Source: an uncultured bacterium (GTDB lineage Bacteria > Verrucomicrobiota > Lentisphaeria > Victivallales > UBA1829). From it: a stretch of 64,000 bases of DNA. The notes beneath the pieces were generated by a model. The model did no database searches and had not been told where the DNA came from. It saw only the letters and a list, made by a program, of their open reading frames with translations. The DNA lies in contig CASFTV010000010.1 in assembly GCA_949297765.1 (NCBI GenBank), forward strand, positions 1-64,000, given 5' to 3'. Shown here one piece after another: positions 51,238 to 55,660 of this stretch. Made by a program: the position numbers and the translations under genes. Each line of letters starts with the position of its first letter. Position 1 is the first letter of the stretch.

Positions 51238-52623
51238 TCAGGGTTCCCGGATTCCTTCGCTGAGCGCTTTGACAAACGGATTGAGAATGTAGTTGATGAC
51301 CGTCCGTTTGCCGACCTTGATTTCGGCCTTGATCCGCATTCCGGCAAGGAGTGTTGCCCCTTGAGCCCGTCCTTTGAGTTTTCCCGAAATTTTCAGATGA
51401 GCCTGATAGGTTGTACTCATGGAGGTCTTGCTCTGACGTCCCCCGTCGTCGGCATCCTCCATCTGTTCGGCGCTCTGGATGCCCTTGTTGAAGGCGTCCT
51501 GGGAGATGTAGATCACTTCGCCGTCCAGAGTTCCGCACTGCTGGAACGGAAACGCATCCAGTTTGATCCGGGCCTTGTCGCCGAGTTTCACCCAGCCGAT
51601 GTCTTTGGCGGGAATATCCACTTCCGCCTCCAGAGGGACATCGGTCGGGATCAGGGTCACGAGTGCTTCCGCCTCGCGGACGGCGGATCCTTCCTGAAAC
51701 GGCGCAAGTTCATGCACGACGGCGTCGCACGGGGACCGCAGTTCGCTCTGCCGATCCAGCATCGCCGCTTTCGGGATGTCCTTGTTGACCGAGATCAGTT
51801 CCCGTTTCACGTCCACATGCTCCTCCATAATCTGGCGGTTCCAGTCCTTGATGAACGCGTTCTTTTCCGCCAGAATGGTCTGAATCTGCTGGCGGTTTTC
51901 CACGATCTGCACATTCTGCTGGTCGATCTGGATCGCCATTTCGAGGAAGGATACCTGCGTCTGAAGCAGATCCTTCAGCGAGACGATGTTTTTCTTCTGC
52001 AGATCGCTCATCATCTTTTCGATTTTGCCGATGGCGTTTTTCCGTTCCTCGTAACGGGTCAGACTCTCTTCCAGCGCTTTCAGAGTTTTCTGATAGCGCA
52101 CGAGATTTTCATCGTAGGAGCGGATCTTCTCCCGGTAGTAGAGTTTTCGGGCTTCGAAGATTCCGAGCTGGTTCTTCATATCCTGATCCGGCTTTTCCGG
52201 AAGGACGAACGGTTTGTCGTAGCCGACCAGCTCCGCTTCCAGACGCATCTTGTGCGCGTTCAGGCTCTGGCGCTGTTCAAGAAGTTTTCCGTAATCCGAT
52301 TCCGTAAGGGTCGGGTCGAACGTGAAGAGAACCTGTCCTTTTTTCACCTTCTGGCCCGGACGGATGTTCACCGTCTTGATCACGGTTCGTTCATAGGGCT
52401 TCATCGTGATGGTCGGACGGACGGTCGTAAGTTTTCCGTCCGCGGCGACGATCTTGTCCACCTTTGCGAAGCTCGCCCATACGATCAGAAGAAACAGAAG
52501 CGCCACGACCAGAAACCATACAACATGCATCGGAAACGGCGGCCGCTGCGCCTCCAGCATAATGGCGTCCGGCTGAAACTCCTCCGCCTCTCTCAGTGTT
52601 TTTGTCGTATTAAATTTCATCAT
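51238..52623 (-). CDS. HlyD-type membrane fusion protein of a type I secretion system
   Basis: A 461-residue protein with one membrane helix (MHVVWFLVVALLFLLIVWASF, about 32-52). It then shows VDKIVAADGKLTTV and IKTVNIRPGQKVKKGQVLF, typical HlyD-family boxes, and a long coiled coil (about 110-310; LEESLTRYEERKNAIGKIEK, TILAEKNAFIKDWNRQ). The C-terminal half-lipoyl and barrel part (SELRSPCDAVVHELAPF, VKLGDKARIKLDAFPF) ends the protein. It links the ABC exporter at 52610 to an outer-membrane channel, which is not encoded here. The start (tandem ATGs at 52623 and 52620) overlaps the exporter's end, which indicates coupled translation. Confidence 0.93.
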   Translation of the reverse strand: MMKFNTTKTLREAEEFQPDAIMLEAQRPPFPMHVVWFLVVALLFLLIVWASFAKVDKIVAADGKLTTVRPTITMKPYERTVIKTVNIRPGQKVKKGQVLFTFDPTLTESDYGKLLEQRQSLNAHKMRLEAELVGYDKPFVLPEKPDQDMKNQLGIFEARKLYYREKIRSYDENLVRYQKTLKALEESLTRYEERKNAIGKIEKMMSDLQKKNIVSLKDLLQTQVSFLEMAIQIDQQNVQIVENRQQIQTILAEKNAFIKDWNRQIMEEHVDVKRELISVNKDIPKAAMLDRQSELRSPCDAVVHELAPFQEGSAVREAEALVTLIPTDVPLEAEVDIPAKDIGWVKLGDKARIKLDAFPFQQCGTLDGEVIYISQDAFNKGIQSAEQMEDADDGGRQSKTSMSTTYQAHLKISGKLKGRAQGATLLAGMRIKAEIKVGKRTVINYILNPFVKALSEGIREP

Positions 52624-55294
52624 CTTCGGTCCCCATCTGCTGACGCCAGAATTCTGCATAAATGCCGTTCCGGCCGATTAATTCCCGGTGTGTTCCGCTT
52701 TCCACCAATTCGCCTTTGTCCATCACCACGATCTTGTTGGCCCGGCAGAGAATGGAGAGCCGGTGGGAGATGATGAACACCGTCCGGTTGCGGGCGATCA
52801 TTTTCAGATTCCGCCGGACAAGCGTTTCGCTTTCCGGGTCGAGTGCGCTGGTGGCCTCGTCGAAGATCAGCACCCGCGGATTCGGAAGAAGGGCGCGGGC
52901 GATGGCAAGCCGCTGCCGCTGGCCGCCGGAAAGGTTGGAGGCATTCTCTTCCAGAATGGAATCGTAGCCTTTCGGCATCTTCTGGATGAATTCATCGGCG
53001 CCCGCCATCCGGGCCGCGTAGATGACCTCCTCCATCGACGCCTCCTTCTTCGTGAGCGTCAGGTTCTCCCGTACCGTGCCGTAGAAGAAGTAGTTGTCCT
53101 GCAGCACGATTCCGATGTTGGAGCGCAGGGAAGAGCGGTCGATTTCCCGGATGTCGATTCCGTCAAACTTGATGATGCCCGCCTGAAGCGGATAGAGTCC
53201 CTGGATCAGCTTGGTCAGCGTCGTTTTCCCGGAACCGGACCGCCCGACGAGTCCGACGGTCGTTCCCGGTGCAATGTGAAGGTTGCAGTCTTTGATCACG
53301 CGCGGTCCGTCCAGCGTGTACTGGAAGGAGACGTTCTCAATGGAGATCTCTCCCCGCAGCTGGTGGTGCAGCGATCCGCCCACCTGTTCTCCCGGGCAGT
53401 TCATCACCACGCCGAGCATCTTCACCGACAGCGCGGTCTGCTGATACTCATGCACCAGCCCAACGATCCGCACCAGCGGCGCCGTCACCCGTCCGGACAG
53501 CATCTGGAACGCGATCAGCGCTCCGACCGACAGCGTCCCGTCGAACACCGATTTCGCCCCGAACCAGATGATGGCGACAAACATCGCCTTTTCCAGAAAA
53601 TTACTCAGCGTCCGTGCGGTCATCGAGATCTTCGCCACCCGGAAGTAACGGGTGATCGCATACGCCGCCGTGTCGTTCCATTTCCTCTGCTGACTGGGTT
53701 CCAGCGCAAGCGATTTGACGGTCCGGATTCCGTGGATTGTCTCCACCAGCATTCCCTGCCGCTTCCCTTCCGCCAGATACAGCTCCTCCAGACGGATCTG
53801 GAACGGTTTAATCAGCGCCGCAATCACCAGCGCCATCGCAAACGTGAACGCCAGAACCACAATCGTCAGCTTCACACTGTAAAACAGCAGAAACGGGAGA
53901 AACACCACCAGCGAAAGCAGTTCCAGCGCCGAAAAGAAAAGACTGCCCGAAAGAAACGAGCGGATCTTCTCCGTCTGCTGCATGTGCTTGATCAGAACGC
54001 CCGAAGCAATTCTCTCGTAGAAATCCACCGGAAGACTCAGCAGCTTGGCAAATGTCCGCGTCGCAAGACGGATGTCGATCCGGTTTGTCGCAAACAGCAG
54101 AAAATAGTTCTCCAGATATTCCAGCGCCGCATTGAACAGAAGCATCACCGATACGCCGATTCCGAGAACTGTCAGCGTATTGTAGCTTTCGTGAACAAGC
54201 ACCTTGTCCACGACCAGCTGGAAGAAGATCGGGATCGCAAGTCCGATGATGCTCATCGAGATGATCGCCACCGCCACCTGTCCCAGAAGAACTCGCTGAC
54301 GGAAAAATTCCGGAATGAACCAGCGAAGTCCGAACGGCTGGTTTTCCTCCAGAAGCGAATAGCGTTTCTTGAGCAGCATCACTTCCCCGGAAAGCTCGGT
54401 CCGGAAATATTCCTCGTCGACAAACTCGATCTTGGGCTTGTGTCCCTCTTTTGCGACGGGATCCCAGATGGCGAGCTGCTGCTTCAGTTCCGGTCCTTTC
54501 GCATCGTTTTTCTTCTGCTCCTCCGGTGTTTCGACGGTGACCTGCGGACTTCCCGCTTCGGCGGTCAATTCCGGTGCGGACGGCGTCTCTTCCGCCGCAA
54601 CCTGCCGCACTCCGCAGAGGACGATTGCGGTGCCGTCCTTCTTGAATGCGATTGCCGGATAGGCCGCGCCGATTCCCGGAAGTTTCTTCCAGGTGACCCG
54701 GATGATTTTTGTCCCGAAATCCTGATCGTCCGCCATCTTCCGGAGAAGGCGGCGGGCTGGTTCATCCTCGGAGATCGCATAGTCGTGGAGGAGTCTTCCC
54801 ACGTCGGTGTCTCCCCCGTGATGTTTCACGATCGCGGAGAGGCAGTAGAGTGCGGTGTGGCGTCCGTCCGCGGAGCATCCTGCAAGTTCGATCTTGATGA
54901 AAATGGCGTTTCCTCCCCATGCGGAGCTCAGCTGGTCGCGCGTGAGGAAGATCATCTTTCCCTGGGTTTTGCCGAGCGGATCGAAAACGGCGAACCGCTC
55001 TTCCGAGACCCCCTGCGAAACGCGGCTCCGCAATCCGAGATAGAGAACCCAGTTTCCGTTGTTGAGACACAGAAGAACGGGCGCTCCGAAATAGGAGGCC
55101 AGCTCGTCCGCGTTGGCGTCGCTGCGCTGTTCGGGCGAAAGACGCAGTTTGGTCGCAAGCTCGATCCCGAGCGCCATCGCGTCATCGGAATCGGTCGGAC
55201 AGGACTGGAGAAACGCCTCCAGTTCCGTCCCGCGCGGAAGCATCCTGGATACCTCGCGCAGACATGATAGTAACGTTTCTGTTTGTTGTGACAT
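52610..55294 (-). CDS. type I secretion ABC transporter with two degenerate C39-like domains
   Basis: An 894-residue exporter. Residues about 30-135 and 140-310 each resemble a C39 peptidase fold. The first has PVLLCLNNGNWVLYLGLR and FDPLG. The second has HTALYCLSAIVKHHGGDTD and WDPVA, where the usual catalytic Cys of C-G-L-A-C-L is Thr147 and the catalytic His region reads PAIAFKKDGTAIVL. Both are therefore non-cleaving C39-like domains as in HlyB. The membrane domain (about 320-600; VAIISMSIIGLAIPIFFQLV) is followed by the ATPase with GRSGSGKT, LSGGQRQRLAIARALL and VLIFDEATSALD. It probably exports a large substrate without removing a leader. It is in operon with a 97-aa protein and the HlyD adaptor. 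Confidence 0.93.
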   Translation of the reverse strand: MSQQTETLLSCLREVSRMLPRGTELEAFLQSCPTDSDDAMALGIELATKLRLSPEQRSDANADELASYFGAPVLLCLNNGNWVLYLGLRSRVSQGVSEERFAVFDPLGKTQGKMIFLTRDQLSSAWGGNAIFIKIELAGCSADGRHTALYCLSAIVKHHGGDTDVGRLLHDYAISEDEPARRLLRKMADDQDFGTKIIRVTWKKLPGIGAAYPAIAFKKDGTAIVLCGVRQVAAEETPSAPELTAEAGSPQVTVETPEEQKKNDAKGPELKQQLAIWDPVAKEGHKPKIEFVDEEYFRTELSGEVMLLKKRYSLLEENQPFGLRWFIPEFFRQRVLLGQVAVAIISMSIIGLAIPIFFQLVVDKVLVHESYNTLTVLGIGVSVMLLFNAALEYLENYFLLFATNRIDIRLATRTFAKLLSLPVDFYERIASGVLIKHMQQTEKIRSFLSGSLFFSALELLSLVVFLPFLLFYSVKLTIVVLAFTFAMALVIAALIKPFQIRLEELYLAEGKRQGMLVETIHGIRTVKSLALEPSQQRKWNDTAAYAITRYFRVAKISMTARTLSNFLEKAMFVAIIWFGAKSVFDGTLSVGALIAFQMLSGRVTAPLVRIVGLVHEYQQTALSVKMLGVVMNCPGEQVGGSLHHQLRGEISIENVSFQYTLDGPRVIKDCNLHIAPGTTVGLVGRSGSGKTTLTKLIQGLYPLQAGIIKFDGIDIREIDRSSLRSNIGIVLQDNYFFYGTVRENLTLTKKEASMEEVIYAARMAGADEFIQKMPKGYDSILEENASNLSGGQRQRLAIARALLPNPRVLIFDEATSALDPESETLVRRNLKMIARNRTVFIISHRLSILCRANKIVVMDKGELVESGTHRELIGRNGIYAEFWRQQMGTEDDEI

Positions 55295-55327: not shown

Positions 55328-55621
55328 TTACTGGAAATTCGGTGAGACCGAGACCTCCGGCTTTCCGGAGTTCCCGCCCTCCCGGCTGCGCTGGACGATG
55401 CCTGCCTCTTCCAGTTTCCGGACCAGGCTTTCCATCGTGGAAAAGGCCTTCACAAATCCCTGCGGCGTCATGATCAGTTCTCCCGTGATCTCGTGGGGAT
55501 TGGGTGCCTGCGGATCGTGTTTTGTATTCACCAGAATATTATAGAGCTCCATGCGGATCATTCCGTCCGTCAGGCTGACCGACTCCATTCCGTCGGCAAA
55601 AATGCGTTTCCGTTCCGTCAT
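55328..55621 (-). CDS. small conserved-looking protein upstream of the type I secretion genes
   Basis: A 97-residue soluble protein from ATG 55621 (TERKRIFADGMESVSLTDGM). It continues MIRMELYNILVNTKHDPQ and ITGELIMTPQGFVKAFSTME, then LVRKLEEAGIV, and ends in a Gly/Ser-rich tail. The size and the pattern of a beta sheet followed by a helix containing a (M)TPQ...K motif recall DUF3467-like proteins, but I cannot confirm this. It precedes the ABC transporter by 33 bp in one operon, so it may be an accessory factor or a substrate chaperone. There is no glycine-glycine leader, so a peptide substrate is unlikely. Confidence 0.7.
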   Translation of the reverse strand: MTERKRIFADGMESVSLTDGMIRMELYNILVNTKHDPQAPNPHEITGELIMTPQGFVKAFSTMESLVRKLEEAGIVQRSREGGNSGKPEVSVSPNFQ

Positions 55622-55660
55622 TGTTTCAATCCTTCTTCTTTCCATACCCTCAGAGTCTTT

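What the first reader, a model, noticed from the sequence alone, without database searches (positions are those of the whole stretch)
52610..55294. ABC exporter with two tandem non-catalytic C39-like domains
The N-terminus holds two segments each resembling a C39 fold with the DP(L/V) motif. The recognised catalytic Cys position is Thr147 and the catalytic His is lost. HlyB-like exporters have one such domain; two in tandem may select two signals or a folded substrate. The substrate gene is not in the operon.
Basis: partly seen in the sequence, partly recalled or inferred. Interest (0 to 1): 0.65.

Follow-up and report, generated by a model that had tools for sequence, protein, structure and literature searches.

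The report
Protein exporter with doubled docking domain
This gut-type Lentisphaerota bacterium carries a type 1 secretion pump whose cytoplasmic end has two dead-protease domains in a row instead of the single one of the classical haemolysin exporter, an architecture conserved in many relatives and apparently undescribed, probably used to catch very large repeat proteins before export.

Summary
Confirmed. The 894-aa ABC exporter (52610-55294, minus strand) begins with two complete C39-like domains, D1 (residues 1-137) and D2 (138-312). Profile comparison, D1-HMM hits on D2, and separate structure predictions agree; D1 alone matches the C39-like domains of a Vibrio exporter (Z 14.3) and HlyB (Z 13.9). 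Both are catalytically dead: the Cys positions are Thr7 and Thr147, the His positions Trp82 and Ala223. None of 58 homologues has Cys at either site. The next gene is a HlyD-type adaptor, so this is a type 1 secretion pump. The doubled domain is old: it occurs across Lentisphaerota (including Victivallis vadensis), in Akkermansia-assigned MAGs and, diverged, in another phylum; a single-domain clade appears to have lost D1. No substrate lies in the window, but the genome encodes a 1551-aa AIDA-repeat protein, apparently without signal peptide, ending GLLA; the same G-x-L-A tail ends cargo-like genes beside this exporter in relatives, RTX and non-RTX alike. This genome has a C39-like exporter but no RTX repeats, contrary to a published correlation. 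The role of D1 (extra cargo receptor) is inferred, not shown. New variant of a known kind.

The parts
52610..55294 (-). ABC exporter, 894 aa: D1 - D2 - transmembrane domain - nucleotide-binding domain
   Evidence: best family TIGR01846 type_I_sec_HlyB 619.8 bits (below its 725.55 cut-off); closest solved chain HlyB 7sgr E 3.8e-137
54884..55294 (-). D1, first C39-like domain, residues 1-137; dead site Thr7 (55274-55276) and Trp82 (55049-55051), Asp105-Pro106 kept
54359..54883 (-). D2, second C39-like domain, residues 138-312, with a low-confidence insertion at about 236-268; dead site Thr147 (54854-54856) and Ala223 (54626-54628), Asp278-Pro279 kept
53477..54271 (-). ABC transmembrane domain, residues 342-606 (PF00664)
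   Evidence: 141.5 bits
52847..53293 (-). ABC nucleotide-binding domain, residues 668-816 (PF00005)
   Evidence: 117.7 bits
51238..52659 (-). HlyD-type membrane fusion protein, 473 aa, ORF overlapping the exporter's 3' end by 50 bases; acidic cytoplasmic N-terminus
   Evidence: TIGR01843 281.4 bits over cut-off 208.65; a homologue is found in 67 of 81 loci, next to the exporter
55328..55645 (-). small protein of 95-105 aa, no known family, directly upstream of the exporter here and in about 20 relatives; conserved SPNF end; possible accessory

Best explanation
The gene encodes the inner-membrane ABC subunit of a type 1 secretion system, paired with the HlyD adaptor next to it and with an unlinked TolC-like channel. 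Its cytoplasmic N-terminus is two catalytically dead C39 domains in tandem. Shown: architecture, dead sites, conservation, operon with HlyD. Inferred: D2, next to the membrane part, does the classical HlyB job (docking HlyD by a basic patch and holding cargo), while D1 is an additional cargo-receptor/holdase arm, so that each exporter dimer presents four such domains to the long unfolded C-terminal part of very large repeat proteins. Inferred: the cargoes are large proteins without signal peptide that end in G-x-L-A (in this genome the AIDA-repeat protein G000:C55:2337-6992, ending EKQGLLA, and a paralogue apparently split over contigs C28/C45 ending QGMLA), recognised at their C-terminal end and exported uncleaved in one step.
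For: Two complete C39-like folds. Both lack Cys in all 58 homologues, which argues against leader cleavage. HlyD adjacent; a TolC-like OEP protein in the genome. Of the HlyD-docking residues of HlyB (named in PMC11026475), K56, K58 and R66 align with basic residues in 44, 49 and 34 of 58 D2 sequences, and the aligned stretch has mean charge +2.1 in D2 but -2.2 in D1. D1 and D2 diverge much faster than the rest (64-75% identity against 95-96% for the membrane and ATPase parts between the window protein and L035) while dN stays well below dS where dS can be estimated; PMC11026475 reports the C39-like domain as the least conserved domain and the main cargo determinant. Cargo: large acidic N/T/S-rich genes sit beside the exporter in relatives, several ending G-x-L-A; RTX proteins of one- and two-domain genomes end GMLA, GVLASL, GILASL, GFLAGL; non-RTX candidates end GLLA/GMLA. 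The cargo module occurs in 14 of 31 genomes with the exporter and 1 of 30 without (Fisher p 1.8e-4, not corrected for relatedness).
Against: No experiment. No cargo gene within the window, so the cargo pairing in this genome rests on the shared tail, composition and co-occurrence. 17 of 31 exporter-bearing genomes show no hit with the own-genome cargo module. The one-domain clade appears to use the same tail type, so D1 is not needed to read G-x-L-A. The Akkermansia-type neighbours end differently (for example FTIANA). The charge-patch argument is an average; in the window protein itself the HlyB K56 position is Gly and the K62 position is Val (as hydrophobic in nearly all homologues).
Confidence: 0.55

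Rival explanations
1. D1 is not a cargo receptor but a structural or regulatory domain: it caps D2, sets the spacing of the exporter dimers around HlyD, or binds the small upstream protein.
For: The D1 His position is always filled by an aromatic residue (Trp 47, Phe 6, Tyr 5 of 58). The small upstream gene is linked to the exporter in about 20 relatives. The one-domain relatives have similar-looking cargo without D1.
Against: D1 is among the fastest-diverging parts, unusual for a fixed structural contact; the small gene is missing beside many two-domain exporters.
Confidence: 0.28
2. D1 is a decayed duplicate without a function of its own.
For: Catalytic site gone; one clade seems to have lost D1 without losing the exporter.
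Against: Retained in most of the 71 of 387 sampled genomes of the phylum that match the D1 model, with conserved positions, confident fold and dN well below dS.
Confidence: 0.05
3. Ordinary HlyB/RTX system whose RTX cargo is simply encoded elsewhere or missing from the assembly.
For: Relatives with the exporter do have RTX cargo, in one case (G005) on the same contig a few kb from the exporter.
Against: No RTX repeat in this genome (98% complete), nor in three others of its genus, nor in G038, G052, G057 of the Victivallis-type group; cargo-like non-RTX giants with the same tail are present.
Confidence: 0.1
4. A leader-peptide processing (PCAT/bacteriocin) exporter.
For: C39 fold; NHLM and bacteriocin exporter families score but far below cut-off.
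Against: No Cys in either domain in any of 58 homologues; HlyD and large-cargo context; the genome has three other exporters with apparently intact C39 sites.
Confidence: 0.02

Closest known systems
HlyB of the haemolysin type 1 secretion system (CLD-type exporter, TIGR01846)
   Same: N-terminal catalytically dead C39-like domain, ABC transmembrane and ATPase parts, HlyD partner; closest solved structure by sequence; D2 matches its domain by sequence (E 1.4e-7) and both domains match it by fold
   Different: Two C39-like domains in tandem; D2 His usually lost whereas HlyB keeps His83; below the TIGR01846 cut-off; no RTX cargo in this genome
PCAT/AMS exporters with an active C39 peptidase (PCAT1, ComA, LahT)
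   Same: Same C39 fold at the same place of an ABC exporter
   Different: One domain with intact Cys-His-Asp that cleaves double-glycine leaders of small peptides; both domains here are dead
cNMP-binding plus C39 exporters of the same phylum (for example L186, L164)
   Same: ABC exporter with an enlarged N-terminus
   Different: The enlargement looks like cyclic-nucleotide-binding domains, not a second C39 domain

Membership tests
Type 1 secretion ABC exporter with C39-like domain (CLD type) | N-terminal C39 fold without catalytic Cys | tested here: met
   Thr147 and Thr7
Type 1 secretion ABC exporter with C39-like domain (CLD type) | HlyD-family adaptor encoded with it | tested here: met
   TIGR01843 over cut-off; conserved neighbour
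Type 1 secretion ABC exporter with C39-like domain (CLD type) | TolC-like outer membrane channel available | tested here: met
   one 477-aa protein with two OEP repeats on G000:C1; its pairing with this exporter is inferred
Type 1 secretion ABC exporter with C39-like domain (CLD type) | one such domain per subunit (usual form; not strictly part of the definition) | tested here: not met
   two tandem domains; hence 'variant'
Type 1 secretion ABC exporter with C39-like domain (CLD type) | RTX-repeat cargo (a correlation stated in PMC8277102) | tested here: not met
   no PF00353 match in this genome; present in some relatives
Type 1 secretion ABC exporter with C39-like domain (CLD type) | large uncleaved cargo with C-terminal signal | tested here: inconclusive
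   candidates with shared G-x-L-A tail; secretion itself not testable
TIGR01846 type_I_sec_HlyB | score over the curated cut-off (725.55 bits) | tested here: not met
   619.8 bits
Peptidase C39 / PCAT processing exporter | catalytic Cys and His | tested here: not met
   0 of 58 with Cys in either domain
NHLM bacteriocin exporter (TIGR03796) | score over cut-off (853.3 bits) | tested here: not met
   418.1 bits

The most novel reading that the evidence does not exclude
A distinct class of type 1 secretion exporter in which a duplicated C39-like domain supplies separate receptors (one for HlyD docking and core cargo, one for a second cargo region or cargo class), letting one pump export both RTX and RTX-free giants marked by a common G-x-L-A tail.
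Probability: 0.3. Interest if true: 0.65.

Novelty: new variant of a known kind. Interest (0 to 1): 0.5.

Why it matters
How type 1 exporters choose cargo through a dead protease domain is still debated. A natural exporter with two such domains, with sister proteins that have only one, is a ready-made experiment on what the domain does. It also gives an exception to the published rule that C39-like domains go with RTX cargo, and offers a short C-terminal tail (G-x-L-A) by which cargo could be predicted in Lentisphaerota, whose secretion is almost unstudied.

Tried and rejected
An extra N-terminal domain in the 977-1088 aa exporters of G165 and G155 and in L164 was checked as a possible second case: by eye those are cyclic-nucleotide-binding domains. 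The idea that D1 goes with loss of RTX cargo was tested and not upheld: several two-domain genomes have RTX proteins and two one-domain genomes have none. The first trees left open whether the one-domain clade is primitive; with nearer outgroups it nests inside the two-domain exporters, with supports of 82-97, so loss of D1 is preferred but not certain. Pfam gave no family for the small upstream protein. Papers: no description of tandem C39-like domains was found in the open library; subscription papers and preprints were not searchable, so absence is not proof.

Full report
What is there. The ORF 52610-55294 (minus strand) codes for 894 aa. Pfam finds the ABC transmembrane domain (342-606), the ABC ATPase (668-816) and a Peptidase_C39 match at 146-220. 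The nearest NCBIfam model is type_I_sec_HlyB, 619.8 bits against a cut-off of 725.55; the nearest solved chain is HlyB. The following gene (51238-52659) is a HlyD-family adaptor over its cut-off. The genome is a Lentisphaerota MAG, judged by its nearest named relatives, Victivallales and Victivallis.

Two domains, not one. I collected 80 relatives from genome contigs and aligned the N-termini of 58. The profile of residues 1-137 (D1) aligns end to end with that of 138-312 (D2): probability 98.2%, E 2.9e-14, 126 columns. A D1-only HMM searched in 387 genomes of the phylum has a match in 71 and, in many of them, also hits the D2 that follows (E to 2.3e-10; a few of the 71 are single-domain relatives). 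Pfam's own C39 model sees D1 only below its cut-off (16.6 bits here; 22 of 58 members match at E up to 1), so routine annotation is likely to miss it. AF2 models: residues 1-330 pLDDT 86.9; D1 alone pLDDT 90.0, pTM 0.85. D2 matches ComA 5xe9 at Z 17.7 (129 aligned, 1.9 A) and HlyB 7sgr at Z 16.6. D1 alone matches 3b79, the C39-like domain of a Vibrio exporter, at Z 14.3 (122 aligned, 2.8 A), and HlyB at Z 13.9. The Foldseek E-values for D1 are modest (1.5e-4), but the best rows are C39 domains.

Both sites are dead. At the catalytic Cys position D1 has Thr7 (homologues: Ser 32, Thr 25, Gly 1) and D2 has Thr147 (Thr 35, Ser 23); at the His position D1 has Trp82 (Trp 47, Phe 6, Tyr 5) and D2 has Ala223 (Tyr 29, others, His 4); the Asp-Pro is kept in most. 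HlyB by comparison has Tyr9 for Cys and keeps His83 (PMC8277102). One-domain relatives keep that His (DGHYAI in all six), as do two forms from another phylum.

Distribution and history. The two-domain form is found in the window genome's family and order, in a few genomes of the rest of the class and in one sampled genome elsewhere in the phylum (G175), in the type strain Victivallis vadensis DSM 14823 (L062) and in nine Akkermansia-assigned MAG loci that form one clade nested inside the Lentisphaerota tree, suggesting transfer. A scan of 198 genomes of the phylum of G413 (the MAG titled Desulfovibrio that holds L109, so Thermodesulfobacteriota if the title is right) found two further tandem forms: L241 (904-aa frame, D1-HMM hits at 73-198 and 196-323) and L240 (869-aa frame, first domain only weakly matched). 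With these in the tree the one-domain Lentisphaerota clade nests inside two-domain exporters, so one old gain of D1 and one later loss is the simplest reading; supports are 82-97 and long branches are involved, so this is likely rather than shown.

Division of labour. PMC11026475 lists the basic residues of the HlyB C39-like domain that hold HlyD (K56, K58, K62, R66, R128) and shows that this domain is the chief cargo determinant and the least conserved. In D2 the positions of K56, K58 and R66 are basic in 44, 49 and 34 of 58 sequences (that of K62 is hydrophobic), and the whole stretch averages +2.1 charges; the aligned stretch of D1 averages -2.2. D1 and D2 both diverge several times faster in protein sequence than the membrane and ATPase domains, with dN well below dS where dS could be estimated. 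This fits D2 as the HlyD-docking domain and both as cargo-facing. It is inference.

Cargo. Nothing in the window looks like a type 1 cargo; the upstream 1396-aa gene has a signal peptide by eye and glycosidase-type domains. The genome has no RTX repeats. It has a 1551-aa protein (L126 2337-6992 minus = G000:C55) with AIDA/strand-loop-strand repeats and a fibronectin type III domain, a papain-like CWGAASSN...HAITGWGY segment by eye, several C-terminal modules of about 125 residues, no signal peptide by eye, and the end EKQGLLA; a paralogue runs off contig C28 and its likely end lies on C45 (QGMLA). Relatives' versions end GMLA (G003, G038, G052, G057). Genes beside the exporter in relatives end VSGMLAS, LAGMLVS, SPNMLAS, SNGTLA, NSGLLAG (two-domain) and RGTLA, RGMLA (one-domain); RTX proteins found independently end GMLA, GVLASL, GILASL, GFLAGL after a shared GAF...KIFEE-like stretch. 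The own-genome module is found in 14 of 31 genomes with the exporter and 1 of 30 without. I read G-x-L-A as part of a common C-terminal export signal. The Akkermansia-type neighbours (2000-2500 aa; FG-GAP and Mac-1-like domains in L057) end differently.

Verdict. I find no report of tandem C39-like domains in the open literature. It is a new variant of a known kind, a CLD-type type 1 secretion exporter.

Noticed in passing
window 55328-55645 (-): Small protein (about 95-105 aa, conserved SPNF end, no Pfam family) directly upstream of the exporter in about 20 relatives; a diverged copy lies elsewhere near the operon in L058, L075, L079 and L102.
   Followed up: partly
L126 2337-6992 (-) (G000:C55): 1551-aa AIDA-repeat protein without evident signal peptide, with a papain-like segment and a GLLA end; candidate cargo. 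A paralogue is apparently split over contigs C28 and C45.
   Followed up: partly
L050-L057, contigs up to 75 kb: MAGs assigned to Akkermansia carry the two-domain exporter, with a 2000-2500 aa neighbour in several (FG-GAP and Mac-1-like domains in L057); the clade sits inside the Lentisphaerota tree, suggesting transfer.
   Followed up: partly
L094, L097, L098, L100, L103, L107 downstream of HlyD: Large acidic proteins of about 950-1500 aa starting with a conserved stretch like FKLEDRVLFEAAAAAE, recalling the LEPR-XLL motif, most next to another conserved gene of about 550 aa.
   Followed up: no
L001, L002, L003 (G000 contigs C17, C29, C28): Three further C39 exporters in the same genome with apparently intact Cys and His, i.e. 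ordinary peptide-processing exporters.
   Followed up: no
L241 and L240 (another phylum): Diverged tandem C39-like exporters outside the window's phylum, with Thr for Cys but His kept in the second domain.
   Followed up: partly
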